From positions 1 through 64,000 of IMG/VR virus record IMGVR_UViG_3300032163_000004: a stretch of DNA of 64,000 nucleotides. One strand, 5' to 3'. Each line of letters starts with the position of its first letter. The first letter of the stretch is position 1. A program made the position numbers and the translations under genes. The stretch comes from a virus. The notes beneath the pieces are model-generated. The model searched no databases. It had not been told where the DNA came from and saw nothing but the letters and a program-made list of their open reading frames with translations. Of this stretch, positions 4,819 through 19,485 are shown piece by piece.

Positions 4819-5538
4819 TTAAACGAATATGGAGTTTATATCTTCTTTTAGTTGTTCTTTAGTTGGAACTTGATCTCTATATCTTAAAATTTTCCAACTT
4901 CTATTTCTTAAATCTTCATCCCTTTGTTTATCGTATTCTTCTTTGCCTTGGTGCCAATGATTTCCATCATACTCTATATCTATTTTTAAACTTGGAATTA
5001 CTACATCTAAAACATACCATTTTCTTCTAAATATCTTTACTACATAATTCATTATACATTCAGGATATAATTCTTTAACATTATTAAATGTTTTAATTTG
5101 AGGCCAAGATGTTTTTCTAACAAAAGAACTAGCGTGAGCTCCTCCACCATTTAACATCCTGATTCTACATCGTTCTTTAATTTCTAGCCTATTGTTAACT
5201 TCTTTCCCAGCTTTACGCCATTTTTCTATATTTTTCGATATAGAATCTTTATGTCTTTGTTTTACATCTGGTTTAACCATAGCTTTCTTAACTGACTCTG
5301 ATAACTTTAACCTTCTTTTTAGACTACTAGCCGCATCTTGGTATTTCTGTCTTGTTCTTGGATTATTCCATTTTTCTTTAAGACCTTTAGACCTCTTCTC
5401 TTTTACTTCCAATTTATTTTGACTTTCAGAATTTCTCTTTCTCATATTACTACAACAATTTTGACTTTTCGAGCAACACCACTTCCCATTCTTTAGTTGA
5501 TATTTTGCTTCTTGCTCACAACCATATTCACAAATCAT
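4819..5538 (-). CDS. EDxHD-type (VSR-like) homing endonuclease
   Basis: 239 residues. N-terminal Cys-rich knot (C-E-Y-G-C, C-C-S-K-S), then a basic region of repeated K/R helices typical of DNA-binding modules of homing enzymes, then a C-terminal nuclease domain with D-I-E-Y-D-G-N-H-W-H and W-K-I-L-R-Y-R-D. That E-x-D-G-x-x-x-H arrangement matches the VSR-related EDxHD homing endonucleases known from Bacillus phages (I-Bth0305I). It abuts the aminotransferase gene and is a likely selfish insertion. The paralogue at 17892-18647 shares the same C-terminal domain. Confidence 0.75.
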   Translation of the reverse strand: MICEYGCEQEAKYQLKNGKWCCSKSQNCCSNMRKRNSESQNKLEVKEKRSKGLKEKWNNPRTRQKYQDAASSLKRRLKLSESVKKAMVKPDVKQRHKDSISKNIEKWRKAGKEVNNRLEIKERCRIRMLNGGGAHASSFVRKTSWPQIKTFNNVKELYPECIMNYVVKIFRRKWYVLDVVIPSLKIDIEYDGNHWHQGKEEYDKQRDEDLRNRSWKILRYRDQVPTKEQLKEDINSIFV

Positions 5539-6527
5539 TACTTCTCTCCTTCATTAAAGGAATAAGGAGTAAGTCCTACTATTTTAGAATCGTTCTCTTC
5601 ATCCCACTTTTGGATTTGTTTTTTTATATCAACTTCTACTTCAAAACTCCATTTGTTTAATAAAGTATTTGTAACTTCAAAGTCCTCTGGATTTCCTGTC
5701 CCAACAGAGATAAAATTCAATGAAGAAACAGGAAGAATACAAAATGGTGTAGCAGTTGCGAAAGCTTCTTTTGCTTCATATACATCATATGGAGTAATAT
5801 TCTTTTCAATCCATTCGATTCCAAGATCATCACAAAGTTCAAATACATATTGTCTACTAATTCCCCTTAAAATATTCCTTCCCTCTGGTGTTATAACTGT
5901 ATCTCTTTTATCTACTATAAAAAAATTGTCACCTGTAAACTCAGCTATATATCCATCAGGGTCTAATAATAAAGACCAATTGTTACTTCCCTTATATCTC
6001 GAAACTTCTAAGTTAGCTCTAACAAAATGTATCCTATTCCTGTTCTTAATTCTTTGGTCTAAAAGGGAAAATGGAATTGTTCTATTAGAAGAAATACAAG
6101 CGTTTATTCCAGTATCAAACAATTTTCCCATCCCTTTCGTCGTTACTCTTAAAGGAAAATCTGCTATAATAGTATTTGACCCAATAGGAACATCTGCAAA
6201 ACCTTGGTATAACCCTAAGAGTCCTCTAGAACTTTCTATTAAAATACGATGTTCGTCGTCATTACTAAGATTTTTTTCATTTTCTTTCATTGCTTCAATA
6301 ACAGCAGATTCTAACTGTTTTTTACTATAAGGGATTTTGATTTCTAAAATTTTTAAACCCACAAGAAATCGATCTAAGTGTTCTTCAAGCTTAAAAATTT
6401 TCTTGTTAAATGATCTAAGCATATCGAAGCAAAGATCCCCAAACATACACGCAGAATCATAAATGGAAATTCTAGCTTCTGACTCTGGAATAAACTGGTT
6501 ATTCCACCACACTACACGCTGATTCAT
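5538..6527 (-). CDS. class IV PLP aminotransferase
   Basis: 329 residues. Fold-type IV aminotransferase (branched-chain, D-amino-acid or aminodeoxychorismate-lyase type). Visible signatures: an early F-G-D-L-C-F-D-M, the PLP lysine in R-I-K-N-R-N-R, G-Y-I-A-E-F-T-G-D-N-F-F and I-L-R-G-I-S-R. Start taken at 6527 after GGAGAGG; the longer frame begins with GTG. The substrate cannot be told from sequence. In this cluster it could supply an amino-sugar or amino-acid decoration, but a general amino-acid role is equally possible. Confidence 0.8.
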   Translation of the reverse strand: MNQRVVWWNNQFIPESEARISIYDSACMFGDLCFDMLRSFNKKIFKLEEHLDRFLVGLKILEIKIPYSKKQLESAVIEAMKENEKNLSNDDEHRILIESSRGLLGLYQGFADVPIGSNTIIADFPLRVTTKGMGKLFDTGINACISSNRTIPFSLLDQRIKNRNRIHFVRANLEVSRYKGSNNWSLLLDPDGYIAEFTGDNFFIVDKRDTVITPEGRNILRGISRQYVFELCDDLGIEWIEKNITPYDVYEAKEAFATATPFCILPVSSLNFISVGTGNPEDFEVTNTLLNKWSFEVEVDIKKQIQKWDEENDSKIVGLTPYSFNEGEK

Positions 6528-7317
6528 TTTCCTCTCCACCTTTCTTCTTCTTCAACAAAAATGGAACATCTGATTGAGCACTAAAATTAGTTAAATCAAA
6601 ATTTGAGAATAACTTCTTCAAAGATATATTATTAAATATGGTAAAATGAGCGACTTCAAAAGGGTACAAACTAAAATCTGGATTATTCATGAAAGGTACT
6701 AAACCATCAGGAGCTATTGGTGTTTCAACTAACAACACTCCATCACTTTTTAAAACTTTTCTAATTTTTTCAACACAAAAAACTGGATCAACCAAATGTT
6801 CAATAACTTCTATAGCTATAACATAATCAAAAGACTGTTCTTCAAAATCTAGTTTTTCAAAAAAGTCAATATAAAGTTTAATTCCATTTTCTAAAAATAC
6901 ATTTCTAAAATCTTTTGAAACTTCAATTGTTTCAATATCAAAACCTTTTTCTTTAAGATACAAACTTACTCTTCCTGCTCCAGCTCCAATTTCTAAAACT
7001 CTTCCTTTAGAGAGTGTATCTATTATATCTATAACTTGTTTTCTAAACTTAGAAGTTTTTCTCTTTGAATCAAACTCAAACTTATTCTTACAATTTATAT
7101 CAGTAATCTTAAATGTTTTTCTATCAGTTGAAAAATAGACGTCTTTATAATACTTCTTAGATTCATCTAAAGTAAAGTAGAATTGTTGATAGAATATCTG
7201 ACAAACACTACATTGAACCATTTTAAATTTGCTTCCATATTTTCCAGATTCACAAATCACTTTGTTATTTTTTGTGTCTCTCCCACACAATGGGCACTTC
7301 TCAGAGTATATTGGCAT
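6499..7317 (-). CDS. SAM-dependent methyltransferase with N-terminal zinc ribbon
   Basis: 272 residues. N-terminal C-P-L-C-G and C-S-V-C zinc ribbon, then a Rossmann methyltransferase (motif I V-L-E-I-G-A-G-A-G-R near residue 100, D-Y-V-I-A-I-E-V-I-E-H, then L-K-S-D-G-V-L-L-V-E-T-P). This order is typical of methyltransferases in sugar and polysaccharide clusters. Overlaps the aminotransferase start by 29 bases, so the two are coupled. Substrate unknown. Confidence 0.8.
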   Translation of the reverse strand: MPIYSEKCPLCGRDTKNNKVICESGKYGSKFKMVQCSVCQIFYQQFYFTLDESKKYYKDVYFSTDRKTFKITDINCKNKFEFDSKRKTSKFRKQVIDIIDTLSKGRVLEIGAGAGRVSLYLKEKGFDIETIEVSKDFRNVFLENGIKLYIDFFEKLDFEEQSFDYVIAIEVIEHLVDPVFCVEKIRKVLKSDGVLLVETPIAPDGLVPFMNNPDFSLYPFEVAHFTIFNNISLKKLFSNFDLTNFSAQSDVPFLLKKKKGGEENESACSVVE

Positions 7318-7352
7318 TTCTACTTCTTCCTTAAATTTTCTTTATAATTTCC

Positions 7353-8153
7353 TCACTGTATCACCATAAGATCTTCAAAATTCTTTACATCCTGTATTTT
7401 CTTTTCTTCCATTTTCGAAACTGTAATTCCCTTCTTGGGTCTTTTCACAACTTTCGCATATACTATATTCGAATAATAATGAAATGGGTATATTTTATTA
7501 AGACGATAATGAGGTTTACAGTACGGTGTTTTTATATTTTCTTTTTTTTCTACTAGTGTAACAATTGGACTTGTACCACCAAAAGAAAGATTTTTCGTCA
7601 TATATAAAGTATTATCTTCCTTTGTGGCAATGGTTATTCTAAATTCAAAATCAATACAACCTATTGAATCGTCAAAATAGTTTTGGACAACTTGAACAAA
7701 ATTTGATGATAAGTAATCATCTATATCATATCGTGTACAAGCAATCATTCTATCTTTTCTTTCCAATTTTGATCTAAACTGTTCTACCCAGTTACCACCA
7801 CATGAATTTCTTTCAGAATAGAATTCTGTTGATTTCCACTCATCAAAAATTATATCGGAGCTAGAAAATTTTGACAAAGAAATCAACTGCTCTTTTATTT
7901 CTTCTGGTGTTCCTTTATCGACTAACCAAATCCATTTAAAATTCTTATTTGTTTGATACATTATTGAGGGAATCGAAAATTGTTTTAAGCACTTGATTTC
8001 TTCCATCATAAATGAATTTTTATCTTCCATTGACTTGAGAGGAAGAGGAATCTTTTTCAAACTCTTCACATAATCCGTCATAGGTTTTACTACTTCTACT
8101 GACGAATATACACCTAAATTTATCCTTGTAATAATATAATGATCAATATCCAT
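7353..8153 (-). CDS. putative rhamnosyltransferase-like glycosyltransferase
   Basis: About 266 residues, starting at the ATG at 8153 nine bases after GGAG; an in-frame GTG start at 8168 is less likely. Patterns F-S-I-P-S-I-M-Y-Q-T, F-K-W-I-W-L-V-D and the DxD-like T-R-Y-D-I-D-D-Y match the family annotated as putative rhamnosyl transferase (GT-A-type nucleotide-sugar glycosyltransferase). Part of the glycan operon. Donor and acceptor unknown. Confidence 0.65.
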   Translation of the reverse strand: MDIDHYIITRINLGVYSSVEVVKPMTDYVKSLKKIPLPLKSMEDKNSFMMEEIKCLKQFSIPSIMYQTNKNFKWIWLVDKGTPEEIKEQLISLSKFSSSDIIFDEWKSTEFYSERNSCGGNWVEQFRSKLERKDRMIACTRYDIDDYLSSNFVQVVQNYFDDSIGCIDFEFRITIATKEDNTLYMTKNLSFGGTSPIVTLVEKKENIKTPYCKPHYRLNKIYPFHYYSNIVYAKVVKRPKKGITVSKMEEKKIQDVKNFEDLMVIQ

Positions 8154-8158
8154 CCATT

Positions 8159-8701
8159 TCAACTCCACGATAATTGTTTTTTAGATTTTCTTATTAAAGT
8201 TAAACCAGCGTATGGACCTGGAATAGTAAAAACCTCAAAGTTTTTATATTTTGGGTTTGTCCTAATCTCCCATACAGCTTCATGGGCATTTGAACACATT
8301 TTTTTACTAAGTAATTCTGGAAACATCGGATGGGTATCATGCATAGCTATGATACCTGTTCCTTCTCTAACGAAAATAGAGAAGTTATTAAAATCTTTTA
8401 AGACTTGATCTTTATCATGATCAGCATCAATGAACAGAAAGTCTATAGGGTCTTTCCATAATAAAGCTAAATCATCAGTTTTCATTGTATAAATTTCAAC
8501 ATTATCTCGTAGAACTGCACCACATTTTTTAATATCTACTGCAATAGCCCATTTAACTAAGGGTGCTATTTGATTAAATGTAAATCCTCTTCTGACACCA
8601 AGTTCCATATATGTATGGATCTCAAGTAATCTAATAAGTTCTTTAAATAGACAAACATATTCCATTCTTATCCATTTTCGTCGGGTTTCTTCAAAACTCA
8701 T
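8159..8701 (-). CDS. class I methyltransferase (CmcI / Methyltransf_24-like)
   Basis: 180 residues. Y-M-E-L-G-V-R-R-G-F-T (motif I), I-D-F-L-F-I-D-A-D-H (motif III) and I-I-A-M-H-D-T-H-P are characteristic of small class I methyltransferases found in cell-surface and antibiotic glycosylation clusters. RBS GAGAGGTAA before the ATG. Likely methylates a glycan component. Confidence 0.75.
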   Translation of the reverse strand: MSFEETRRKWIRMEYVCLFKELIRLLEIHTYMELGVRRGFTFNQIAPLVKWAIAVDIKKCGAVLRDNVEIYTMKTDDLALLWKDPIDFLFIDADHDKDQVLKDFNNFSIFVREGTGIIAMHDTHPMFPELLSKKMCSNAHEAVWEIRTNPKYKNFEVFTIPGPYAGLTLIRKSKKQLSWS

Positions 8702-8757
8702 TTACCTCTCTCCAAAGAATTAACTCTCCATATCTATTGTTTTGTTTCATTTTAAAC

Positions 8758-9582
8758 TTATTTTCTTCTTAATTTTTTCTTTACAATTTCCTCACTAGGG
8801 AACACTATCCATCTTCCATCACCACCTGCTATTTCAAAACCTCTAACATAATCAACTATCTTATAAACACCCGGAGGTTCAATACTAGCAGCCTGATCAG
8901 TTCCATAAGAAGCTCTATTAAGAGTGATATGAAATTCTAACATTTCAGCTCCTAATGCAGCTGCTACACAACAAAAGTAAATCCCAGGATGATGGTTCGA
9001 AAAACCAATTCTATATTTTGGATATTCTTCCTTTAAAGTCTTTATAAAATTAAGATTCACTTCTTCATCACTAGTTGGGTAAGTTGATGTACAAGCAAGT
9101 ATATATTCAACTTGATCTCCAAGAAATTTTAAACAATTATCAACTTCTTTTTTCGTTGACATTCCAGTCGATACTATTGCAGGAATACAAGTTTCTTTAA
9201 CTGCGTACAAAATTTCAAAATCATTTATAGTTGGAGACGCCACTTTTATATAGGGTATATTATAAGAAGCTAAAAACTTTATAGAAACTGGATCCCAGCC
9301 AGACGAAAACCAAGGAATATTTTTTTGTTTACAGTATTCATTAATTATATCATACTGTTCTTTCCCAAACTCTAGACCATATTTCTGTTCTCTAGTTATA
9401 GTTCCCCAAGGAGACTCTCTATATTTATTAAGTTCTTCTTCCGTATAGACAAGATCTACAGTCCTTTTTTGAAATTTAACAAAATCACATCCAGTTAAAG
9501 CTGCTACATCTATTAATTTTTTTGCAATATTAATATCCCCATTATGATTAATTCCTAGTTCACAGACCAGTTTAGTTTTCAT
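8758..9582 (-). CDS. neuB: NeuB-family nonulosonate (sialic acid) synthase lacking SAF domain
   Basis: 274 residues. Condenses phosphoenolpyruvate with an N-acetyl-hexosamine derivative to a 9-carbon sialic-acid-like sugar. Signatures: C-E-L-G-I-N-H-N-G-D at the N-terminus, F-V-K-F-Q-K-R, W-F-S-S-G-W-D, Y-I-K-V-A-S, I-V-S-T-G-M-S, C-T-S-T-Y-P-T and G-F-S-N-H-H-P-G. The TIM barrel is complete through H-I-T-L-N-R, but the protein stops where the usual C-terminal antifreeze-like SAF domain (about 60-70 residues) should follow. Start after TTTGGAGGACAT. The sugar made (Neu5Ac, legionaminic or pseudaminic) cannot be decided. Confidence 0.85.
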   Translation of the reverse strand: MKTKLVCELGINHNGDINIAKKLIDVAALTGCDFVKFQKRTVDLVYTEEELNKYRESPWGTITREQKYGLEFGKEQYDIINEYCKQKNIPWFSSGWDPVSIKFLASYNIPYIKVASPTINDFEILYAVKETCIPAIVSTGMSTKKEVDNCLKFLGDQVEYILACTSTYPTSDEEVNLNFIKTLKEEYPKYRIGFSNHHPGIYFCCVAAALGAEMLEFHITLNRASYGTDQAASIEPPGVYKIVDYVRGFEIAGGDGRWIVFPSEEIVKKKLRRK

Positions 9583-9648
9583 ATGTCCTCCAAATTTTTA
9601 GCAAAATCTATATTTCGGAGAACACATCAAACTTCTTTCTTCTTAAAT

Positions 9649-10221
9649 TTATTTTATAACATTAACATATAAAGCATAGTGTTTATACTTTTCGTGATCT
9701 CTATCCATGAATATTTCTATACAGTTGTGAAATGATGATCTTTGGGTTTCAGAAAATTTAGCTTTCTTTAAAAAATATGATAACAACTCAAAATCAAAAG
9801 CCATTTTATGTCCATTTGCACTTTTGCTTATATCTGGAGAATAGAACCAACTTATTAATCTTCCAGCTTTAAATTTAGTTAAAATTTCATCTGCCTGGTA
9901 TGGACATCCTTTTGTAAAAAGTTTTTCGGGTTGATTCAAATAAAACTTAACACCAACATTTATGTCAGGAACTACAACTCTAAACATTCCTCCAGGTTTT
10001 AGCGTTCTATAGATTTCAGATAAAACGAATTCAAGGTGTACTCTATCTAAGTGCTCAAGAATCATAGAAGAATAATAGTTATCTACAGAATTATCTTTCA
10101 ATTCAAATGGTTTCATACTATTCAAATCATAAACAAATTCTGAAGATTTACGACTATCCATAACTTTCCATAATTCATTCATAATTCTATTTTTCGCTCC
10201 CCCAACATCTATATTCAGCAA
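9649..10221 (-). CDS. SAM methyltransferase-like protein (COG4627-like)
   Basis: 190 residues. The TTG at 10221 has GGAGG eight bases upstream and sits just past the previous stop; the longer open frame overlaps the upstream gene and is unlikely. L-L-N-I-D-V-G-G near the start, S-M-I-L-E-H-L-D-R and L-K-P-G-G-M-F-R-V-V-V-P-D match small predicted methyltransferases that accompany glycosyltransferases. Motif I (D-V-G-G-A) departs from the usual G-x-G, so catalysis is not certain. Confidence 0.65.
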   Translation of the reverse strand: MLNIDVGGAKNRIMNELWKVMDSRKSSEFVYDLNSMKPFELKDNSVDNYYSSMILEHLDRVHLEFVLSEIYRTLKPGGMFRVVVPDINVGVKFYLNQPEKLFTKGCPYQADEILTKFKAGRLISWFYSPDISKSANGHKMAFDFELLSYFLKKAKFSETQRSSFHNCIEIFMDRDHEKYKHYALYVNVIK

Positions 10222-10222
10222 T

Positions 10223-11017
10223 TTATTTTTCCTCCAAAGTATTTTTTCTAAGATAATCACCGCTCCAGTGAGAAATATCAGAATTACAATATTCAATACT
10301 CATATAGTATTTCTGATCTTCTGTTAAATTTTTATAATCTAAATACCAATCTAGATGCCTTGCATCATATGGTTCCCCTATCCTAAAAGAAAGTCTCTTC
10401 TTAAAAAATGTGGAATATCTTCTATACATAGCGAAAGGAGTTACATTTGCTTCTCTATATTTTATGATAAACTTATCAAACTTTATTTCTTCTCCAAATT
10501 CATTAATTCGTTTACCTCTGTATTTTTTAAAAACAAGTTCTTTTAGAGGATAATGATCAGGTATATCATCCATTTTTGGCATTGGACCAACTTTATAAAG
10601 TTCACTTTCATGAAACATATCTAAAAGAGAAGCATAAAACACTAGAACATTTTTTCGAGTTTTTTCATAAAAAGCCATATCTGGATCAGTAACACAATAA
10701 AATCGACTATCATTCCCTGTTTCTAAAAAGTACCTAGATATAGATTGATTTACTAAAGCATACATATCCTGTTTAAATTTAAACTTCTTATGTTTAAATC
10801 TATAAACTCTAATTCCTTTATCTTCAAGTTGTTTCAAGTATTCTAAAGTGTCTGGAAATGATGTACCTGTATCATGAATAACTATTTCAAAAGGAGTTGC
10901 AATATATTCATAATACGATTTAATCGCTTGTTTCAAAACAGTTAACTTATTAAATGAAATAATAAAAATTGGAATTCTACTTCTAGAGAGGTTTGTTTTT
11001 TGTTTGACCGTAATCAT
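10223..11017 (-). CDS. glycosyltransferase family 2-like protein
   Basis: 264 residues. I-P-I-F-I-I-S-F-N-K-L and F-E-I-V-I-H-D-T-G near the N-terminus and the metal-site-like V-T-D-P-D-M near residue 115 resemble GT-A glycosyltransferases. The start codon overlaps the end of the upstream gene region closely, so the genes are coupled. Acceptor unknown. Confidence 0.6.
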   Translation of the reverse strand: MITVKQKTNLSRSRIPIFIISFNKLTVLKQAIKSYYEYIATPFEIVIHDTGTSFPDTLEYLKQLEDKGIRVYRFKHKKFKFKQDMYALVNQSISRYFLETGNDSRFYCVTDPDMAFYEKTRKNVLVFYASLLDMFHESELYKVGPMPKMDDIPDHYPLKELVFKKYRGKRINEFGEEIKFDKFIIKYREANVTPFAMYRRYSTFFKKRLSFRIGEPYDARHLDWYLDYKNLTEDQKYYMSIEYCNSDISHWSGDYLRKNTLEEK

Positions 11018-11782
11018 TTAAAGTTCCACCATCCTTAAACTAGGGTATAGTAATGTTTTAGTACTTATTAAAACAATCTCTTTATTATTTGGTACAAAAT
11101 ATCGGTTATTAAAATCAATTATGAAATCTTTAATATGGTAAGTATTATGAGGTTGATCTGCAGTTTTCCCAACTTCGTGTTGTTTATTAAATTGATGGTG
11201 AACAGGACCAAACTCTGGATGATCAGTCCAAAAATATCTTGAATCTCTCATATCAATTCCTACTAAAATAACTTTTTTATAATCTAACTTGTACAACATA
11301 TCAATTAGTACAGTTAATGAAGCATCATAAGACTTAGTTAAAATAGGAGAACTTACATTATAATTAGCATCCATAATTCCCCCTAACTTCTTCTCTTTCT
11401 TACCCCTTTCTTCATAACCGTAAGTGAATATTCTAGATTCATCATGATGACCAATTCCCTCTCTAACAAATTTAAACCTATTTGAACTCATTATAAAATT
11501 AGTATCTTTATAGTACTTCCATTTCTTATCAAAATGTTCTCTAACGATTTCTCTATCATACGATTTAAGTTCTATATGATAAAACTTTGGGATAACACGA
11601 AAATCACACCCTGGAGGTTTTAGTGGCATATAAACATAATTATTCATTGCCCAAAAATCATAGTTAATTATTTTCTTCCATTGTTCTGCAGTCAAATCAT
11701 TGATAGAACTTCCGGACCCCATTAACACAACTGTATCATTACTCTTCAATTTAGATAAGTCTTTAAAATCTCCAGTTCTCAT
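11018..11782 (-). CDS. sialyltransferase (GT42)-like or DUF115-like protein
   Basis: 254 residues. V-V-L-M-G-S-G-S-S-I-N-D-L near the N-terminus, W-A-M-N-N-Y, S-Y-D-A-S-L-T-V-L-I-D-M-L, Y-K-K-V-I-L-V-G-I-D-M, a His-containing N-T-Y-H segment and a C-terminal L-I-S-T-K-T-L-L-Y-P follow the order of motifs in Campylobacter-type GT42 sialyltransferases (G-N-G-P-S-L, L-G-Y-x-x-I-x-L-x-G-I-D, H-Y, P-x-S-L). The match is from memory of the fold. The related DUF115/MptE-like group is the main alternative. Genes for a NeuB and a NeuA lie nearby, making a nonulosonate transferase attractive. Confidence 0.45.
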   Translation of the reverse strand: MRTGDFKDLSKLKSNDTVVLMGSGSSINDLTAEQWKKIINYDFWAMNNYVYMPLKPPGCDFRVIPKFYHIELKSYDREIVREHFDKKWKYYKDTNFIMSSNRFKFVREGIGHHDESRIFTYGYEERGKKEKKLGGIMDANYNVSSPILTKSYDASLTVLIDMLYKLDYKKVILVGIDMRDSRYFWTDHPEFGPVHHQFNKQHEVGKTADQPHNTYHIKDFIIDFNNRYFVPNNKEIVLISTKTLLYPSLRMVEL

Positions 11783-11943
11783 ATTTTCTCCATCTGTTCT
11801 TTTGAAGTAACTTTCTTTATTGACTCTTTAAACTTCTTAACTAACTCTTTTTGTTCTTCTAAAGTTAAAGACTTAATCTCAATGATAAACACCTTTTTAT
11901 CATCTGTTTCTTTTGGTCTTGAACACGCAAGTATACAGCACAT
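11779..11943 (-). CDS. 54-residue hypothetical protein
   Basis: Start taken at the ATG at 11943 just after the radical SAM stop; the frame extends upstream within that gene. M-C-C-I-L-A-C start, then V-F-I-I-E-I-K-S-L and a charged helix. Its stop overlaps the next ATG (ATGA). May be a small accessory subunit. Function unknown. Confidence 0.5.
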   Translation of the reverse strand: MCCILACSRPKETDDKKVFIIEIKSLTLEEQKELVKKFKESIKKVTSKEQMEKI

Positions 11944-11944
11944 A

Positions 11945-12751
11945 TTAGTAACCAGTTGGGACTCCGTAGAAGTGGCACTTATTTCCACAATAAGGAATTA
12001 AATGTCTTTTTCCTTCAACGTGTAATTTTTTCATTTCTAGTCTTTTTTCACAGCTCCAAAGTTCTTGTAAAGTATAGTATTTAGAATTTCCAAGAACTAA
12101 TTCACCATCTTTATCAAATCTTACACACGTAGAAACTTGCCCAAACCTATTTATTGCTAAATGATGTAAAAAATCTTCACATATTCCATGTTCAGGAATC
12201 GTTGGACTTTTTTTATAGTTAATACTCCCATTTGGATCATGTAGAACTCTTCTAACTTTCAACAATGAAAACTCACCATATCTACTTTCGTCAACTTTTC
12301 CAACAAATCTCAAAGTAGTAAATGGTTTTTTATCTTTTTTCAACTCTAAAAATTTTTCTATTAGTATATATTGTTCTTCCCATTCCGGATCACCCTGAAT
12401 AATTGAGATTGAGATTGTATCTAAATTATCTATAATCTCATCTGATTTTTCAATAATTAATTTTCCATTTGTTACAAAATTAGTTATTCGTCCTTCTCCT
12501 TTAAAAAGTTGGATTGCTTCTTTTAATTTTGGATACAGACTACATTCTCCATTGTTATGGAATTGGACAATTATATTTGGAGGAACTTCTTTAGATATCT
12601 TTTCTAACAAGGAAAATTCTATATCTCCATAATATAATTTAATGTTTGGATTTTCTCTCTCACGTTTTCTCCGTCCACAAAAAGAGCAATTTTTATTACA
12701 CCTATCACTAAGCTCAATATTTAAATTAAACAGTCCATATAAACTATTCAA
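11945..12751 (-). CDS. radical SAM protein with SPASM-like C-terminus
   Basis: 268 residues. C-N-K-N-C-S-F-C near residue 18 is the radical SAM 4Fe-4S motif (CxxxCxxC). F-H-N-N-G-E-C-S-L follows as the SAM-binding segment. The C-terminal part has G-I-C-E-D, G-Q-V-S-T-C-V-R-F, L-G-N-S, L-Q-E-L-W and C-G-N-K-C, as in SPASM domains binding auxiliary clusters. The start is a TTG overlapping the upstream stop (TTGA), with AAAGGA before it. Probably modifies a sugar or peptide; substrate unknown. Confidence 0.8.
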   Translation of the reverse strand: MNSLYGLFNLNIELSDRCNKNCSFCGRRKRERENPNIKLYYGDIEFSLLEKISKEVPPNIIVQFHNNGECSLYPKLKEAIQLFKGEGRITNFVTNGKLIIEKSDEIIDNLDTISISIIQGDPEWEEQYILIEKFLELKKDKKPFTTLRFVGKVDESRYGEFSLLKVRRVLHDPNGSINYKKSPTIPEHGICEDFLHHLAINRFGQVSTCVRFDKDGELVLGNSKYYTLQELWSCEKRLEMKKLHVEGKRHLIPYCGNKCHFYGVPTGY

Positions 12752-13323
12752 ATCAATTCCTTTCTAGCCTTAAGAGAAGAACTAATTTTCTTTTTTGTTT
12801 CTTCTGTAAAAGATTTAGCTTTATAATTTGGATTATACTCTCCTCTCATACTTTCTCTAGGACCTCTCATTTTTTCTCTAACATCTTCTCTTTTAGATGG
12901 ATTATTATTACCTAAAATTCTGTATCTTCTAATTTCTCTTTCCTCTTCACGTTTAGCTACATTATTTATTGATAACTTTCTTCTATGTTCCTCAGTAAAA
13001 ATTTTTCGTTTACCTGCTTCACTCATTTTCTTTCTAGACTCTTCATTAGGAAAAAATCCTAAAGTTCCATCTCCACCATCTGTTAAATTATAACCATTTG
13101 GAACTTTACAATTATAAAATCTAATCCAGTACCTTTCTTTTTCATTAAGATCTTCTTCATTTTCTGTTAAATCTATAACTTCTTTTGTAAAGTTCTCCTT
13201 ACTGTACTTTTTAATTGCCTTTTGTAGTAATATACCAGAACCAAAATAGTCAGGATTACTTTTAGAATCTTTACCAACGTAAACTTTCCTATTAATTTTA
13301 TTTGTAGTTTTATAAATTATCAT
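12748..13323 (-). CDS. GIY-YIG homing endonuclease
   Basis: About 191 residues from the ATG at 13323, which begins M-I-I-Y-K-T-T-N-K-I-N-R-K-V-Y-V-G, the usual start of the GIY-YIG fold. E-R-Y-W-I-R-F-Y and Y-N-L-T-D-G-G complete the nuclease domain at residue 90. The remaining residues carry NUMOD3-type helices (N-N-N-P-S-K-R-E-D-V, N-P-N-Y-K). Inserted in the glycan operon. A second GIY-YIG enzyme is at 24191-24865. Confidence 0.8.
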   Translation of the reverse strand: MIIYKTTNKINRKVYVGKDSKSNPDYFGSGILLQKAIKKYSKENFTKEVIDLTENEEDLNEKERYWIRFYNCKVPNGYNLTDGGDGTLGFFPNEESRKKMSEAGKRKIFTEEHRRKLSINNVAKREEEREIRRYRILGNNNPSKREDVREKMRGPRESMRGEYNPNYKAKSFTEETKKKISSSLKARKELI

Positions 13324-13416
13324 TATTCTGCTACTTCCTTGGATCAACGTAAATATAGACGTAGAAATCTCTTCTCACGCCTATATCTACATTGTTTATA
13401 CTATCCATATTTTATC

Positions 13417-13719
13417 TTATACTGCAGCTGCTGCTTTTTGTTCTTTCTTAGCTTTAGCAGTAGCAGCAATTTTCGCTTTTATAGCTTCTCTCTTCACTGG
13501 ATCCGACCAAGTCTTACGAAGACTTTCAGAAATCTTTTTCTTAACATCCGCTCTCTTAGTTGGGTTATTGTCTCCAGAAATTTTAGCTCTAACTTCTGGT
13601 TTTGCCCATGCTTTTTTCAACGCTTCAGAAATCTTTTTTCTCACTTCTTCTCTTGTTGCTGGAATTTTCTCTCCCATGATCTTCTCCCTTCCTTCTTTAG
13701 TTTCTTGTACTTCAGTCAT
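13417..13719 (-). CDS. stand-alone NUMOD3-repeat DNA-binding protein
   Basis: 100 residues, ATG after AAAGGAGAATTTTAAA. Consists almost wholly of NUMOD3-like repeats (K-K-I-S-E-A-L-K-K-A-W, D-N-N-P-T-K-R-A-D-V, K-K-I-S-E-S-L-R-K-T-W) with an Ala/Lys tail, and has no nuclease domain. These modules normally form the DNA-binding tail of homing endonucleases. It may be a remnant or a separate small DNA-binding protein. Lies directly upstream of the GIY-YIG gene, in the other module order. Confidence 0.65.
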   Translation of the reverse strand: MTEVQETKEGREKIMGEKIPATREEVRKKISEALKKAWAKPEVRAKISGDNNPTKRADVKKKISESLRKTWSDPVKREAIKAKIAATAKAKKEQKAAAAV

Positions 13720-13761
13720 TTTAAAATTCTCCTTTCTTTTTTATTTTTGATTTGTTCGGAG

Positions 13762-14391
13762 TTAAACAGAAGACATCTGTACCTGTTTTTCTCCTAGAAA
13801 CATGACTGTCCAGTTTTCTCTCCAACCACCTAACTCATCTATAGGAGGTACATCTAAAATTCCAATTTTTCCTCCCCTATGATCTTGTCTTCTCTTTCCA
13901 ATATCATATCCAGATAATATAGTAATAATCTTACCAGTTCTTTCAAACAAATATCTTAATCCATCTGAACTGTACCGAAACATATCTACAGGAACCGGAT
14001 GATAACGCCATGAAAAAACTGTAATATGCAATGCTAATCCACCAGGTTTTAAAATTCGACTTATCTCTTCTGCAGCTTTCCACGGCTCATTTAAATGCTC
14101 AAAAACATTATTTGAATAAACTATATCATATGAATTATCTAGAATTTCTGGACAACTACAAATATCTGCGTAGACTATTCTCTCAGATTTTATGTTCTTA
14201 TCACATTCAAGAATTACATATTCAAAACCCATAGATTCCCAACGAACTTTAGATTTTCCAGATCCTCCACCAACATCAAGAAAAACTAGCCTTTCTTTTT
14301 TGTGATTTTCTGCGTATTCTCTAATCTTCGAATACAATAAATTCTTATCAACAAATTTGTAGTGAGGAGAATATCTAAGTCCAGTCATCAA
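13762..14391 (-). CDS. SAM-dependent methyltransferase
   Basis: 209 residues. V-F-L-D-V-G-G-G-S-G-K (motif I), Y-D-I-V-Y-S-N-N-V-F-E-H-L and I-L-K-P-G-G-L-A-L-H-I-T place it in the Methyltransf_11 group. The end V-F-S-W-R-Y-H-P-V-P-V-D is typical of methyltransferases in O-antigen-like clusters. Coupled to NeuA by a 4-base overlap. Confidence 0.75.
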   Translation of the reverse strand: MMTGLRYSPHYKFVDKNLLYSKIREYAENHKKERLVFLDVGGGSGKSKVRWESMGFEYVILECDKNIKSERIVYADICSCPEILDNSYDIVYSNNVFEHLNEPWKAAEEISRILKPGGLALHITVFSWRYHPVPVDMFRYSSDGLRYLFERTGKIITILSGYDIGKRRQDHRGGKIGILDVPPIDELGGWRENWTVMFLGEKQVQMSSV

Positions 14392-15050
14392 TCTCTCATT
14401 AACTTTTCTATATTTTTTAAATCTTCTTCTGTGTCTATTTCAAACATCATCCAAAATGGAATATCTACGGTTCCAATTCTACCACTTAATCTACATTTAC
14501 TAGATAAAATACTTTCTCTGGTTGCTACATAAAAAGAACCATTTTCAATTTTATAGTTATCTTTTCTTACTGATCTACTTCTGTTATTAAGATCATAGTT
14601 GACTGGAGACATTCCATACTTGTTACATTCCCAAAATAAAATATCAGCTTCATGCATAGGGACTGAAGAAAACACACTATCCCATTCTTTTGATTTAACC
14701 ATATTAATTCCGATATTTATATATTCTGATCTAATCATAGGAGAAGTTGGTTGTATCAAAACAATAATATCACATCCTGGAGCCTTCTCGCAAAAATGTA
14801 AAAGAACATCATCTGTAGTTGCATTATCAGTTGCTAATTCAGGTGGTCTTGTTAAAACTTTACTACCATAGTTAACAGAAACTTTTGCAATTTCCATATC
14901 TTCCGTGCTAACAAAAGTCTCATCTACATTTGATTCAAGTGAAGCTTTTATAGCATAGTAGATTAAAGGTTTTCCATTTAACATGACCAAATTTTTTCTT
15001 GGTATACGTTTCGAACCACCTCTAGCCGGTATTAACGCAACTATTTTCAT
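14388..15050 (-). CDS. neuA: CMP-N-acetylneuraminate cytidylyltransferase-like
   Basis: About 220 residues. Activates a nonulosonate sugar as its CMP derivative for transfer. Hallmarks: A-L-I-P-A-R-G-G-S-K-R-I-P-R-K-N, V-S-T-E-D, L-I-Q-P-T-S-P, D-S-V-F-S and E-N-G-S-F-Y. Full family length. Start taken at the ATG at 15050; an in-frame TTG lies three codons earlier. Partner of the NeuB-like gene at 8758. Confidence 0.88.
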   Translation of the reverse strand: MKIVALIPARGGSKRIPRKNLVMLNGKPLIYYAIKASLESNVDETFVSTEDMEIAKVSVNYGSKVLTRPPELATDNATTDDVLLHFCEKAPGCDIIVLIQPTSPMIRSEYINIGINMVKSKEWDSVFSSVPMHEADILFWECNKYGMSPVNYDLNNRSRSVRKDNYKIENGSFYVATRESILSSKCRLSGRIGTVDIPFWMMFEIDTEEDLKNIEKLMRD

Positions 15051-16011
15051 TCTTTCCAATTACCCCTTTCATAATTTCAATGTACTGATTAGCCATATAT
15101 CTAGCAGTTAGTTGTTCTGGCAGTAGTACTATTCTCTTGTCTTTACTAATTTCCACCATAAATTTCAGAATGTTTTCCTTAAGTTCTGGAGTTAAAATAT
15201 TGAATTCTTCTCTATAAGGATAAGATGGTTGAAAATCATTATCAAAGTCTCCATCACATACTACACAACCATCTACCATCGAACACATTTCTGTAGCTCC
15301 TCCACATTTATCGCTAGTTATAACTGGTATACCCGCCCCAATACATTCAACTACAGAATTTGGACATGAATCTCTTTTACTTAAATGAAGACTAAAATCA
15401 GATATATTCAAAACTTGTCCAACGATTGTTCTATCAACCATTCCATAATAAATTATTCTTGAATGTTTTACTTCTTTATTATCATGAAGTTTTCCAAGTA
15501 TGTGCAAAGTTGAATTCGGAACTATCTTTAAGAATTCTAAAAACAAACTAATAATCTCTTTAAGTCTCTTATGTCTTCTCCATTTTCCAGAAACTACAAT
15601 ATTTATTCCATCATGATGTTTTCTTTCTCCACACCAATTTAGATCGATTCCATTATAGATAACTCTGCATAACGAACCTTTCTTTCTTGGAGTTAAAAAC
15701 TTTTCACATAATGTTTTAGAATAGTTACTTTGATAAATAACTCCATCTGCAATAGAATTAGAAAAACTGATCTCTAAATTTCGACTTGTAAAGTCTTCAT
15801 CAAGATCGTAATATATGCCGTCTATTCGAAGAACTATTGGTAAATTTTTTCTTTCTCTTATTCTAACAAACGAAAGCTGAACATTACACCTTCCCTTATT
15901 TGTCACACTCCTTTTAATCGCATCTGAAATAGAATGATTATTAGAATTCCAATGTGGTGTCATTCTACTAATAACTATATGGTGCTTCTTCCTTTCAAGA
16001 TATATTTTCAT
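15022..16011 (-). CDS. GT-B glycosyltransferase (group 1 / GT4)
   Basis: 329 residues. N-terminal half has L-P-I-V-L-R-I-D-G-I-Y-Y-D, Q-S-N-Y-S-K and V-I-Y-N-G-I-D. C-terminal half has V-S-G-K-W-R-R-H-K-R-L, L-H-I-L-G-K and the donor-binding S-C-P-N-S-V-V-E-C-I-G-A-G-I-P-V-I-T-S. These match retaining GT4-type transferases. Overlaps NeuA and the upstream GT2 gene, indicating one operon. Confidence 0.82.
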   Translation of the reverse strand: MKIYLERKKHHIVISRMTPHWNSNNHSISDAIKRSVTNKGRCNVQLSFVRIRERKNLPIVLRIDGIYYDLDEDFTSRNLEISFSNSIADGVIYQSNYSKTLCEKFLTPRKKGSLCRVIYNGIDLNWCGERKHHDGINIVVSGKWRRHKRLKEIISLFLEFLKIVPNSTLHILGKLHDNKEVKHSRIIYYGMVDRTIVGQVLNISDFSLHLSKRDSCPNSVVECIGAGIPVITSDKCGGATEMCSMVDGCVVCDGDFDNDFQPSYPYREEFNILTPELKENILKFMVEISKDKRIVLLPEQLTARYMANQYIEIMKGVIGKNENSCVNTG

Positions 16012-16813
16012 TTTTCTTTAACATCCTTCTATCTCTAGCATTTCTATACATTCTTAATTTATCTTCATGAACCGCTTCTTTATATTCTCTAGACTTATTA
16101 TACCACAACCTTGTAATACTATTTTCATGAAGTCTATACAAATATAGAGGTATAGGTATATGGTGTAATTTTCCAACTTCTTCTAATTTTAAAACTAAGT
16201 CTTTATCTACTGACTTTAGTAAAGTAGAATCTACTCCTTCAGTCTGATCATAAAAACTTCTTTTAAAACATTTAACATGACTTACCCTAACATTATTACC
16301 AAGATATTGATCACCATCAAATTCTCCTAAATAAGTTTGACCTTCTTTAAAAGTAGTACATCTCATTCTCTTATATAGTTTTAAATTTTCGTAACATGCC
16401 CAATAATCACTATAAACCAAAGAAGCTTCTGGATGATTATAATGCGCTTCAACTAACATTTTAAGAGCATTTCTATGACCAAAAGTATCATCACTATCAA
16501 CAATTACTACTAATTCTCCCTTTCCAAACTCTATAGCATGTTTTAATGATTGTCCATACCCACAATTAAAGGAGTGTGAAAAAATTTTTATTTTATTGAT
16601 CATACTAAATCTTCTAACTGTACTCTCTAAGAGTTTTAATGTAATATCAGTGGAACAATCATCCACTAAAATAATTTCATAATTTGTATAAGATTGAAGC
16701 CAAATACTTCGAATACAATCTACGATAAACCTACGCGAATTATATGTTGTTACAGCTATATTAACTAAGGGTCTATATATAGTTTTAAATGAGTTTTCTT
16801 CGAATTTTTGCAT
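15995..16813 (-). CDS. glycosyltransferase family 2
   Basis: 272 residues. GT-A signatures V-N-I-A-V-T-T-Y-N-S-R-R-F, I-I-L-V-D-D-C-S-T-D and V-I-V-D-S-D-D (metal-binding DxD). Close paralogue of the next gene upstream (shared K-C-F-K-R-S-F-Y, T-E-G-V-D and K-S-V-D-K-D-L), so the pair arose by tandem duplication. Overlaps both neighbours. Confidence 0.85.
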   Translation of the reverse strand: MQKFEENSFKTIYRPLVNIAVTTYNSRRFIVDCIRSIWLQSYTNYEIILVDDCSTDITLKLLESTVRRFSMINKIKIFSHSFNCGYGQSLKHAIEFGKGELVVIVDSDDTFGHRNALKMLVEAHYNHPEASLVYSDYWACYENLKLYKRMRCTTFKEGQTYLGEFDGDQYLGNNVRVSHVKCFKRSFYDQTEGVDSTLLKSVDKDLVLKLEEVGKLHHIPIPLYLYRLHENSITRLWYNKSREYKEAVHEDKLRMYRNARDRRMLKKNENIS

Positions 16814-17519
16814 TTTTTATAATCTTATCCCTACTCTTCCCAATTTTTTTCTGCTCATCTTTTGGTTTTCTAAAAAAATTATTTGATAAATTATTTCTAT
16901 GTTCTCTATACATATATGATATAGCATCAACGTAAAAAAATGGGCCTACTTCTTCTAGTTTAAATATTAAATCTTTATCTACTGATTTTACTAAAGTAGG
17001 ATCTACTCCTTCAGTTTTATTATAGAAACTTTTTTTAAAACATTTAAAGTGACTAACACCCTTCATAAAGTTAAGGAATGTCTTTCCTTTAGGTATCTGA
17101 AAATTCTTTACTATTCTCATATGATGTAAATTAGAATCACATACCATATAGTTCGTATAAACTAAACAAACACCAGGATATTTTTCATGTGGAGCAACAA
17201 CTAAAGATAGAGCATTAGATTTTATAGCATCATCTGAATCTACAACAGCTACTAAATCTCCTTGACTATACTGAATAGCATCACTTAGAGTTCTTCCATA
17301 TCCAAAATTCTGTTTATGCTTAAATATTCTACATTTCTTTTTAATACCTAGTCTAGAAATAGTTTTTTCAACAACTTCAAGAGTTCCATCTGTAGACGCG
17401 TCATCTACAATCACCAATTCCCAATTCGTATATATCTGATCATAAATACTCTTTATTGCTTGTTCTATGAATTTCGAAGTATTAAAACAAGTCATTGCTA
17501 TAGAAACTTTAAGCGACAT
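16785..17519 (-). CDS. glycosyltransferase family 2 (paralogue)
   Basis: 244 residues. V-S-I-A-M-T-C-F-N-T-S-K-F, L-V-I-V-D-D-A-S-T-D-G-T-L and V-A-V-V-D-S-D-D define the GT-A nucleotide-binding core. Tandem paralogue of 15995-16813. First glycosyltransferase of the leftward glycan operon. Confidence 0.85.
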   Translation of the reverse strand: MSLKVSIAMTCFNTSKFIEQAIKSIYDQIYTNWELVIVDDASTDGTLEVVEKTISRLGIKKKCRIFKHKQNFGYGRTLSDAIQYSQGDLVAVVDSDDAIKSNALSLVVAPHEKYPGVCLVYTNYMVCDSNLHHMRIVKNFQIPKGKTFLNFMKGVSHFKCFKKSFYNKTEGVDPTLVKSVDKDLIFKLEEVGPFFYVDAISYMYREHRNNLSNNFFRKPKDEQKKIGKSRDKIIKNAKIRRKLI

Positions 17520-17530
17520 ATTTTGTCCTT

Positions 17531-17866
17531 CTACTTCTTCAATATATGTAATCCTGGAATTGAAATATTAGAAGTGGCTTGTACGTAAGTTCCAAAAAGG
17601 TCTCCTAAAGCTGAAACTTTTCTAATAAACGAAACACTGTCCCAATATATAAGAAGCTCTCTAGAAAAGTTTCCATTCTCTGAAAGGTCAGCCATACTAT
17701 GCATCAAACCTTTTTCAGTTTTCTGAGTTACGATTAAGACAGCATCACGTAGGATAAGAAAATGCTTTGAATTGTCATCTTTATATGTAGAAACAAACTT
17801 ACCTATGACTTCGATACCATTAAAGTTTACTGCGATTACATCATTCTCAGTCAAAAAATTATCCAT
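17531..17866 (-). CDS. hypothetical small beta-rich protein
   Basis: 111 residues, ATG after AAAGGAGAACTTT. Starts D-N-F-L-T-E-N-D-V-I-A-V-N-F-N-G-I-E-V-I-G-K-F, an Sm-like or SH3-like beta-barrel pattern, followed by H-F-L-I-L-R-D-A-V-L-I-V. This layout is seen in unassigned phage proteins. No function assigned. Confidence 0.6.
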   Translation of the reverse strand: MDNFLTENDVIAVNFNGIEVIGKFVSTYKDDNSKHFLILRDAVLIVTQKTEKGLMHSMADLSENGNFSRELLIYWDSVSFIRKVSALGDLFGTYVQATSNISIPGLHILKK

Positions 17867-17891
17867 AAAGTTCTCCTTTCAAAATTCAGCT

Positions 17892-18647
17892 TTATTTTAA
17901 TAACAGTTTTACATCTTCTAATAATTGTTCTTTACTTGGAACATAGTCTCTATATCTTAAAACTTTCCAACCTTGAGATTTTATTCTTTCATCTCTTTTT
18001 CTATCTTTTTCTTGATCTTGATGCCAATATGAACCATCATGTTCTATATCTAATTTAATGCTAGGAACAGCAATATCAAGAGAATAGTTTAGAAACTGAT
18101 AATTTAGAATAGCACCAAAGAATAGTTCTTTAGTATTTTCAAATGTTTTAATTTGTGGATAAGAAGGATTTTGTATAAACGAATTAGCATAAGCAGCTCC
18201 ACCTTCCAACATATACTGTCTACGTTTCTCTTTCTCTTCATTTGAATGAATCTTCTTTCCTTCATGACTTTTACTTAAGTTCTTTTTATGACCTTCTGAA
18301 AACTTCATACCAGTACGTTTTTCACGTATTTTCTTTCTAGACTCTTCTAATTTCATATGGCTATCCACACCATATTTTCGTCTAGACGTTTTCTTAGATT
18401 TTTCTTTAACTACAATATCTGAATTACTACACTTGTAAGAACAGTGTTTAGAATAACCTGAAGTTAAGTATTGAAAACTAGTTTCGTTACTACAATTAGG
18501 GTTACTACACACGCCTTCTCCATCTTTCTTAAAGAACTTATCATAGTATTCTTTACTTCTCATACTATGTTTTTGAAAAACGTGGGATACTAAACCCAAA
18601 TAATTCTTACATTCTTTTATGCATATTTTACAAATCAAAGATATCAT
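17892..18647 (-). CDS. EDxHD-type (VSR-like) homing endonuclease
   Basis: 251 residues. N-terminal zinc fingers (C-K-I-C-I-K-E-C, C-S-N-P-N-C, C-S-Y-K-C), a Lys/Arg-rich middle with R-R-K-Y-G-V-D-S-H, and C-terminal L-D-I-E-H-D-G-S-Y-W-H plus G-W-K-V-L-R-Y-R-D-Y-V-P-S-K. Nuclease domain closely related to 4819-5538. The E-x-D-G core and trailing His are intact, so it is probably active. Free-standing between two unrelated genes. Confidence 0.75.
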   Translation of the reverse strand: MISLICKICIKECKNYLGLVSHVFQKHSMRSKEYYDKFFKKDGEGVCSNPNCSNETSFQYLTSGYSKHCSYKCSNSDIVVKEKSKKTSRRKYGVDSHMKLEESRKKIREKRTGMKFSEGHKKNLSKSHEGKKIHSNEEKEKRRQYMLEGGAAYANSFIQNPSYPQIKTFENTKELFFGAILNYQFLNYSLDIAVPSIKLDIEHDGSYWHQDQEKDRKRDERIKSQGWKVLRYRDYVPSKEQLLEDVKLLLK

Positions 18648-18664
18648 TTTAATCTCTTACTAAG

Positions 18665-19000
18665 TTAAATTCCAAATTTCTTTCTGAAACCACTCACATC
18701 TTTTCCAAGTTTCTCTGCTGCAGCAGCTATTCTTCTAGCAATTCCTTTCCTTATAGAAGGACTATATTTAGTATGATTTTTTGGCATAGAAAAGTAACTT
18801 ATAGCAGCTTGAATGTGCTTCAAATCCACTGGGTATTTTTTATTAGCTGGATCTGCAAATGCTACATTTCCATATTTTTTAACAGCTGATTTTTTAGCTG
18901 CAGGTGAAGAATCTTCTTCAACTACTATATCACCTTCTTCATTAATAGTTCTATAAAGTTTCTCTAATGTATCTTGTACTAAACTTATTTTAACTGTCAT
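18665..19000 (-). CDS. DUF6582-like protein
   Basis: 111 residues, ATG after CGTGGAGGTTGT. The core F-A-D-P-A-N-K-K-Y-P-V-D followed by I-Q-A-A-I-S-Y-F, P-K-N-H-T and I-R-K-G-I-A-R-R-I is the conserved pattern of DUF6582, often found as a tail on phage morphogenesis or scaffold proteins and as a free protein. Function unknown. Confidence 0.6.
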   Translation of the reverse strand: MTVKISLVQDTLEKLYRTINEEGDIVVEEDSSPAAKKSAVKKYGNVAFADPANKKYPVDLKHIQAAISYFSMPKNHTKYSPSIRKGIARRIAAAAEKLGKDVSGFRKKFGI

Positions 19001-19032
19001 ACAACCTCCACGATAACATTTTGTATTTGTTC

Positions 19033-19485
19033 TTATTTTCTAGATTGTTTACACTTATCTCTAACTTTCATCAAGATCTTTCCTAAATTATTTTCTCCAA
19101 CTCCTTTACAAACTCCCCAAAAAGTATCACCCCACCAATTATCTTCTATTAGTTCAACACCACCTGTATCTAGCAGTTTATCTAACAAATCAGGATTTTG
19201 AGAAAACTTAGCAGTCACAACTTTCTCCATCACTAGAAGACTGACATCTCTCCAATCCTTACGAACTACTTTCTTAAACTCAGCTGCAAGTTGTTTAGCA
19301 TCTGATGGTTTCTCACACAACCTAATCCTTTCTGCTATTTTTTCGTCTGTTGTGATAAACTTCATAGCTTGAAATGCATGTTCTGAAGACGGATATTTTA
19401 CCCCTTCAACTATGACTTCACATCGATAGAAATTAGATAAAAAACTATACCACTTTTGAAATCCTCTTATTTTCTCTTCCATCAT
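19033..19485 (-). CDS. NADAR family N-glycosidase-like protein (YbiA/COG3236)
   Basis: 150 residues. Family signatures: F-L-S-N-F-Y, Y-P-S-S-E-H-A-F-Q-A-M-K, A-K-F-S-Q-N-P-D-L, L-I-E-D-N-W-W-G-D-T-F-W-G-V and N-L-G-K-I-L-M. NADAR proteins act on N-glycosidic bonds of ADP-ribose-linked molecules; some reverse ADP-ribosylation of guanine in DNA. In a phage it may neutralise ADP-ribosyl-based defence or act in NAD metabolism. Overlaps the next gene by one base. Confidence 0.82.
   Translation of the reverse strand: MMEEKIRGFQKWYSFLSNFYRCEVIVEGVKYPSSEHAFQAMKFITTDEKIAERIRLCEKPSDAKQLAAEFKKVVRKDWRDVSLLVMEKVVTAKFSQNPDLLDKLLDTGGVELIEDNWWGDTFWGVCKGVGENNLGKILMKVRDKCKQSRK

What the first reader, a model, noticed from the sequence alone, without database searches (positions are those of the whole stretch)
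5538..17519. Nonulosonate (sialic-acid-like) and glycan operon in a phage
NeuB- and NeuA-like genes, two GT2 paralogues, a GT4, a GT2-like, a rhamnosyltransferase-like, a possible GT42, four methyltransferases, a class IV aminotransferase and a radical SAM protein lie on one strand with overlaps. Making, activating and transferring a 9-carbon sugar is plausible. Targets may be the virion, host envelope (to block other phages) or modified nucleotides. No precursor gene such as NeuC, PseB or PseC is visible, so host supply is needed or another part of the genome encodes it.
Basis: partly seen in the sequence, partly recalled or inferred. Interest (0 to 1): 0.66.

Follow-up and report, generated by a model that had tools for sequence, protein, structure and literature searches.

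The report
Phage cassette for aminated sugar acids
This uncultured phage carries a widespread, apparently undescribed four-enzyme set (a shortened sialic-acid-synthase relative, a cytidylyltransferase, an aminotransferase and a radical-SAM enzyme) that probably builds and activates an unusual amino sugar acid for decorating surfaces; the same set recurs in many unrelated phages, including small ones in which no sugar-transferase gene was found.

Summary
The gene content is real: 5538-17519 (minus strand) of a 102,210-base phage contig holds NeuB- and NeuA-like genes, several glycosyltransferases, four methyltransferases, a class IV aminotransferase (AT4) and a radical SAM protein. The interpretation needs changing. 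The NeuB belongs to a subfamily lacking the C-terminal SAF domain and, in all 223 relatives checked, the acidic residue at NmNeuB position 134. It fails the sialic- and pseudaminic-acid synthase cut-offs, so a nine-carbon nonulosonate is not established. AT4 and the radical SAM protein are core, not peripheral: searches starting from either recover the short NeuB within 8 kb in 34/38 and 36/44 non-redundant viral loci. In podophage-like contigs the four genes sit beside large-terminase and portal genes without a detected GT2 gene. The radical SAM protein resembles BtrN, a sugar-alcohol dehydrogenase, by profile and predicted fold. The oxidation slot (radical SAM or SDR/TIM) and the aminotransferase slot (class IV or III) are swapped while NeuB and the cytidylyltransferase stay. 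Best reading: synthesis, oxidation, transamination and CMP-activation of an aminated 3-deoxy-2-ulosonate. Chemistry is inferred. No usual precursor gene was found on the contig.

The parts
5538..6539 (-). Class IV (BCAT-like) aminotransferase, AT4: core of the cassette
   Evidence: PF01063 141 bits; invariant K165 taken as the PLP lysine; NeuB within 8 kb in 34 of 38 non-redundant viral AT4 loci
6499..7317 (-). SAM-dependent methyltransferase (PF13489)
7353..8168 (-). Putative rhamnosyltransferase-like glycosyltransferase (PF11316)
   Evidence: 35.6 bits against cut-off 23
8159..8701 (-). Methyltransferase (PF13578)
8758..9582 (-). Short NeuB: PEP-condensing synthase without SAF domain; core of the cassette
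   Evidence: PF03102 205 bits; below NeuB and PseI cut-offs; residue comparison
9649..10296 (-). Methyltransferase (PF08241); the annotated TTG start is uncertain
   Evidence: homologue in L005
10223..11017 (-). Weak GT2-like glycosyltransferase
   Evidence: 23.5 bits at cut-off 23.3
11018..11782 (-). Sialyltransferase-like fold (GT29/GT42/DUF115-type), candidate transferase of the CMP-sugar acid
   Evidence: AlphaFold pLDDT 88.8; Foldseek: M. jannaschii HPPK E 3.5e-4, human ST8SiaIII E 1.5e-3 prob 1.00; homologues in NeuB loci
11945..12751 (-). Radical SAM / Twitch protein, BtrN-like; core of the cassette
12748..13347 (-). GIY-YIG-like homing endonuclease gene inserted in the operon
   Evidence: sequence; sub-threshold Pfam GIY-YIG and NUMOD3
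13762..14391 (-). Methyltransferase (PF08241)
14388..15059 (-). NeuA-type CMP-sugar-acid cytidylyltransferase; core of the cassette
   Evidence: PF02348 88.8 bits; best solved relative PpNeuA 9t4z E 5e-34
15022..16011 (-). GT4 glycosyltransferase
   Evidence: homologue in L098
15995..16813 (-). GT2 glycosyltransferase, paralogue b
16785..17519 (-). GT2 glycosyltransferase, paralogue a

Best explanation
The heart of the operon is a four-enzyme cassette that makes a CMP-activated, amino-bearing 3-deoxy-2-ulosonic acid. (1) The short NeuB condenses PEP with a host-supplied sugar aldehyde. (2) The BtrN-like radical SAM enzyme oxidises one hydroxyl to a carbonyl. (3) AT4 transaminates it. (4) The NeuA-type enzyme links the acid to CMP. 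In this phage a sialyltransferase-fold protein and the GT2, GT4 and PF11316 enzymes would then build it into a methylated glycan on the virion or the infected cell's surface. Shown: gene content, conservation, catalytic residues, fold matches, linkage and slot-swapping. Inferred: the reactions, their order (step 1 may come after steps 2-3) and the target.
For: NeuB keeps the Glu25, Lys53, Gln55, Lys129, Ser213, His215, His236 and Asp247 equivalents (NmNeuB numbering) in at least 152 of 154 viral and all 69 bacterial relatives. Searches anchored on AT4 and on radical SAM find short NeuB within 8 kb in 34/38 and 36/44 clusters at 90% identity. The radical SAM profile hits BtrN first, in both the core and the cluster-binding region (E 3e-13); the model of the window protein hits BtrN first (E 1.9e-11), then BlsE, with SpeY and DesII further down. 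The three core and four auxiliary cysteines are invariant. Slot swapping: in AT4 loci radical SAM only 25, TIM/SDR only 10, both 0, neither 3 (p 6e-7), with at least 5 changes of partner on the AT4 tree; in radical SAM + NeuB loci class IV only 29, class III only 9, both 1, neither 4 (p 1e-5; PF00202). One natural NeuA-AT4 fusion (545 aa, L112). NCBIfam spiro-SPASM matches both the SpsF-type NT and the radical SAM protein of L023 at different ends. Bacterial neighbours: NeuB-AT4-rSAM-SpsF contiguous in L023; 7 of 8 Omnitrophota radical SAM loci hold NeuB and an NT.
Against: No product or substrate is known. Fold matches to BtrN cover a large family with varied chemistry (epimerases and peptide maturases rank just below). 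BCAT-fold enzymes usually act on alpha-keto acids, so AT4 could instead act on the ulosonate's own keto group, which would block CMP-activation. The A2 and A3 profiles were seeded from NeuB-linked members, which biases towards linked relatives. Swap statistics treat related loci as independent. Two Omnitrophota loci (L267, L272) and phage locus L099 carry radical SAM together with another SDR, so exclusion holds only in AT4 loci.
Confidence: 0.5

Rival explanations
1. Ordinary sialic-acid-type operon: host ManNAc (or a legionaminic/pseudaminic precursor) is condensed by NeuB, activated by NeuA and transferred; AT4 and radical SAM only adjust side groups of the glycan.
For: NeuB and NeuA Pfam families and PEP-site residues; relatives L009 and L011 carry a WecB/NeuC-like gene close to NeuB.
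Against: No SAF domain and hence no Arg314; no Glu/Asp at position 134 in any of 223 relatives; equivalog cut-offs failed; no NeuC, PseB or PseC homologue on the contig; AT4 and radical SAM travel with NeuB in small phages that lack other glycan genes near by.
Confidence: 0.2
2. AT4 transaminates the keto acid made by NeuB itself, giving a polyhydroxy amino acid; the nucleotidyltransferase activates another group, and the product is not a glycosyl donor in the sialic-acid sense.
For: AT4 is closest to branched-chain aminotransferases, which act on 2-keto acids; the podophage-like contigs show no GT2 gene.
Against: AT4 is replaced by class III aminotransferases, which typically act on terminal amines or aldehydes (chemistry from general knowledge); the nucleotidyltransferase is of the NeuA/KdsB type, which needs the anomeric hydroxyl of a keto acid.
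Confidence: 0.12
3. The radical SAM protein is an epimerase, dehydratase or peptide maturase unrelated to transamination.
For: EpeE, SuiB and PqqE rank within a few orders of magnitude of BtrN in the fold search.
Against: BtrN is first in both sequence and fold, with four auxiliary cysteines as in BtrN; no precursor-peptide gene was noticed; it is replaced by SDR/TIM in AT4 loci.
Confidence: 0.15

Closest known systems
Sialic / legionaminic / pseudaminic acid pathways (NeuB, NeuA; LegI/LegF; PseI/PseF)
   Same: PEP-condensing NeuB-family TIM barrel followed by CMP-activation; sialyltransferase-like fold next to it
   Different: NeuB without SAF domain and without the acidic residue 134; no NeuC/PseB/PseC on the contig; AT4 and a radical SAM enzyme as constant partners
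Kdo8N pathway of Shewanella (KdnB oxidase, then an aminotransferase acting on Kdo)
   Same: Logic of oxidising an ulosonate hydroxyl and transaminating it before CMP-activation; PMC5125639 describes KdnB as the Kdo 8-oxidase that starts Kdo8N synthesis
   Different: KdnB is an iron-type alcohol dehydrogenase; here a radical SAM enzyme (or SDR/TIM) and a class IV or III aminotransferase; substrate unknown
BtrN (butirosin) and relatives SpeY and BlsE
   Same: Twitch radical SAM fold, three core and four auxiliary cysteines, best profile and fold match; BtrN does a two-electron alcohol oxidation (PMC9012708)
   Different: About 15% identity; different pathway; activity untested
NCBIfam TIGR04321 spiro-SPASM protein
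   Same: One protein holding an NT-like region and a radical SAM/SPASM region, like the separate SpsF-type NT and radical SAM here
   Different: Scores far below its cut-off; function of that family was not found here

Membership tests
NeuB family (PF03102) | Pfam score above cut-off over the TIM barrel | tested here: met
   205.4 bits against 22.1, profile 1-239/241
N-acetylneuraminate synthase NeuB (TIGR03569) | Equivalog cut-off | tested here: not met
   206.3 against 399.65 bits
Pseudaminic acid synthase PseI (TIGR03586) | Equivalog cut-off | tested here: not met
   159.8 against 340.25 bits
Canonical NeuB/sialic acid synthase | C-terminal SAF/antifreeze-like domain with Arg314 | tested here: not met
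   Window protein ends after the barrel (274 aa); median 2-3 and at most 27 extra residues in 223 relatives
Canonical NeuB/sialic acid synthase | Acidic residue at NmNeuB position 134 | tested here: not met
   Thr118 here; the commonest residues in relatives are L, M, C, S, K, R and A
Canonical NeuB/sialic acid synthase | PEP- and metal-site residues (Glu25, Lys53, Gln55, Lys129, Ser213, His215, His236) | tested here: met
NeuA / PseF cytidylyltransferase | PF02348 cut-off | tested here: met
   88.8 against 22.6 bits
NeuA / PseF cytidylyltransferase | PseF equivalog cut-off | tested here: not met
   121.9 against 205.7 bits
BtrN-type Twitch radical SAM dehydrogenase | CxxxCxxC and four auxiliary-cluster cysteines | tested here: met
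   C18, C22, C25 and C191, C209, C255, C259 invariant in nine sequences
BtrN-type Twitch radical SAM dehydrogenase | Two-electron alcohol oxidation | not testable with these tools
   needs an enzyme assay
GT42 / GT29 sialyltransferase | Family sequence signature | tested here: not met
   No Pfam hit for 11018-11782 or three relatives; no convincing solved relative by sequence
GT42 / GT29 sialyltransferase | GT-A-variant fold | tested here: inconclusive
   ST8SiaIII prob 1.00 but TM 0.43-0.45; best hit is HPPK
Branched-chain aminotransferase IlvE (TIGR01122) | Equivalog cut-off | tested here: not met
   143.8 against 245.55 bits; PF01063 itself is met

The most novel reading that the evidence does not exclude
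Phages across several lineages, from T4-like to P22-like, share a mobile four-gene cassette for a new class of CMP-activated aminated ulosonic acid, using radical SAM oxidation plus class IV transamination on a SAF-less NeuB scaffold. In small phages the product is handed to host transferases, remodelling the host surface or virion without a phage transferase.
Probability: 0.35. Interest if true: 0.8.

Novelty: new variant of a known kind. Interest (0 to 1): 0.64.

Why it matters
It identifies the likely function-defining partners of a very common but unassigned short NeuB subfamily (over 500 hits in each of two collections) and gives phage and bacterial operons in which to test it. A radical SAM dehydrogenase in a CMP-sugar-acid pathway would be new to my knowledge, as would a sugar-acid cassette in small podophages placed between large-terminase and portal genes. 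It suggests a defined chemical that phages add to virions or infected cells, measurable by mass spectrometry.

Tried and rejected
Single-sequence viral scans with AT4 and radical SAM found none and three weak loci; alignments were needed. DNA hypermodification as the purpose: nothing in the operon or its relatives pointed to nucleotides; not pursued further. GT42 by sequence alone: no Pfam hit and no credible solved-structure hit; replaced by fold prediction. Precursor genes NeuC/WecB, NDP-sugar epimerases and DegT on the contig: none. Transferases in eight podophage-like contigs: no GT2 and no member of the 11018-11782 family; other GT families were not tested. Literature: no relevant paper found linking radical SAM, this NeuB and aminotransferases, and none of the ten listed for virus-encoded NeuB bears on it; only open-licence papers were searchable. 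Named phage records: NeuB in three of 50,697 and the radical SAM family in none.

Full report
OBSERVATION. The window is bases 1-64000 of a 102,210-base linear IMG/VR virus record, about 32-33% GC, with tRNA genes, an NAD-dependent DNA ligase and a T4-type clamp loader. Two corrections: homing-endonuclease-like genes interrupt and flank the operon (12748-13347, 4819-5538, 17892-18647), and the 'possible GT42' is supported by fold, not by sequence. Its AlphaFold model (pLDDT 88.8) matches M. jannaschii HPPK (E 3.5e-4) and human ST8SiaIII (E 1.5e-3, probability 1.00, TM 0.43-0.45).

THE NEUB. The 274-residue protein is a PF03102 TIM barrel (205 bits) but scores only about half of the curated cut-offs for sialic and pseudaminic acid synthases. 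It has no SAF domain. In meningococcal NeuB that domain supplies Arg314, without which (R314A) the enzyme is inactive (PMC6795526). Alignment to the meningococcal protein and counts over 154 viral and 69 bacterial relatives show that the PEP- and metal-site residues are kept, the SAF domain is absent throughout (at most 27 residues beyond the barrel), and position 134, glutamate in NmNeuB, shows no acidic residue among those counted. (That Glu134 is catalytic rests on my own knowledge and was not checked.) A motif near residue 59 (PWG or PFG, position 58 variable) is typical. On a tree of 187 members phage and bacterial sequences separate with 11 changes, and the window's nearest relatives are all viral.

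THE CASSETTE. AT4 and radical SAM had strong relatives in NeuB loci of phages and bacteria. Reverse searches with alignments of AT4 and radical SAM were then scored with profiles of all partners. After clustering at 90% identity, 34 of 38 viral AT4 clusters and 36 of 44 viral radical SAM clusters have a short NeuB within the fetched 8 kb; 36 of 38 AT4 clusters have a cytidylyltransferase. Some exceptions are near contig ends. In a group of podophage-like contigs the order is NeuB-NT-AT4-rSAM or NeuB-AT4-rSAM-NT, next to a large terminase gene and often a portal gene. Eight such contigs of 26-48 kb have no GT2 gene and no relative of 11018-11782. The window carries the same four core genes inside a larger glycan operon; another phage contig (L098/L180/L222, 98 kb) carries NeuB, NeuA, AT4, radical SAM, the GT4 and the sialyltransferase-like gene in a different order.

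RADICAL SAM. The profile's best solved relative is BtrN, matched in both the core and the auxiliary-cluster region (E 3e-13). The model of the window protein (pLDDT 81) also hits BtrN first (E 1.9e-11), then BlsE, with SpeY and DesII among other Twitch/SPASM proteins further down. CxxxCxxC and four further cysteines are invariant, and BtrN's auxiliary cluster is held by four cysteines (PMC9012708). BtrN performs a two-electron alcohol oxidation.

SLOT SWAPPING. Among AT4 clusters the loci carry radical SAM (25) or a TIM-barrel isomerase and/or SDR (10), never both, with three having neither (p 6e-7). The TIM protein resembles xylose-isomerase-like barrels only weakly; the SDR scores below cut-off to sugar dehydrogenases, KduD among them. 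On the AT4 tree the partner changes at least five times. Among radical SAM clusters with NeuB, the aminotransferase is class IV (29) or class III (9), with one locus having both and four having neither (p 1e-5; PF00202). Swapping of unrelated dehydrogenases and aminotransferases around a constant NeuB and cytidylyltransferase is what an oxidise-then-transaminate pathway would give. A natural NeuA-AT4 fusion exists, and NCBIfam's spiro-SPASM model matches the SpsF-type NT and the radical SAM protein of L023 in different parts. In Omnitrophota 8 of 193 genomes have the radical SAM family; in 7 of these 8 loci NeuB and a cytidylyltransferase lie in the same cluster.

MECHANISM. Most likely: PEP plus a host aldehyde gives a 3-deoxy-2-ulosonate; one hydroxyl is oxidised and aminated; the acid is CMP-activated and transferred. 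The order is unsure. The NT-AT4 fusion favours amination next to CMP-activation. The Shewanella Kdo8N pathway, whose first step is Kdo 8-oxidation by KdnB (PMC5125639; the aminotransferase step is from my own knowledge), is the nearest precedent. In the window the further transferases and methyltransferases suggest a decorated glycan. Where no phage transferase is seen, host transferases would have to serve; this is inference.

LIMITS. No biochemistry. Profiles were seeded from NeuB-linked members. Swap tests ignore relatedness except for the tree. The window contig may be incomplete. Named phage collections hold almost no relatives, so no host or isolate is known. Only open-licence literature could be searched.

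Noticed in passing
window 4819-5538, 12748-13347, 17892-18647; contig 66832-67446, 70048-70740, 73732-74454, 75532-76263, 88047-88937, 100324-101046: At least nine homing-endonuclease-like genes (DUF559, GIY-YIG or NUMOD3) on one phage contig, many lying between glycosyltransferase or radical SAM genes.
   Followed up: partly
contig 71592-77562 and 96387-101761: Further glycan clusters on the same phage: GT4, GT9-like, a 578-aa GT2 plus methyltransferase fusion, another GT2, and two more radical SAM proteins.
   Followed up: partly
window 38614-38689: ARAGORN calls a tRNA with anticodon tta (a stop-codon reader) and an unusual tRNA-Asp (atc) at 37973-38044; either suppressor tRNA or false call.
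   Followed up: no
L014 (Marine virus AG-345-L05, Kyanoviridae) 5511-20905: A large glycan cluster with short NeuB, DegT, SDR and a cytidylyltransferase-like gene (by sequence appearance) in a virus record of the cyanophage family; an ORF at 23095 looks like psbA.
   Followed up: partly
L009 11782-12768, L011 11766-12752, L010 5591-6592: Viral relatives carry a WecB/NeuC-like gene (by sequence appearance) close to the short NeuB, so some phages may supply a precursor themselves.
   Followed up: partly
L112 3796-5433 (identical in L119 and L192): A natural 545-aa fusion of NeuA-type cytidylyltransferase and class IV aminotransferase.
   Followed up: yes
L107-L170, many loci: Class III aminotransferases also lie near short NeuB in about 20 viral loci without the radical SAM gene, a possible third form of the module.
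   Followed up: no
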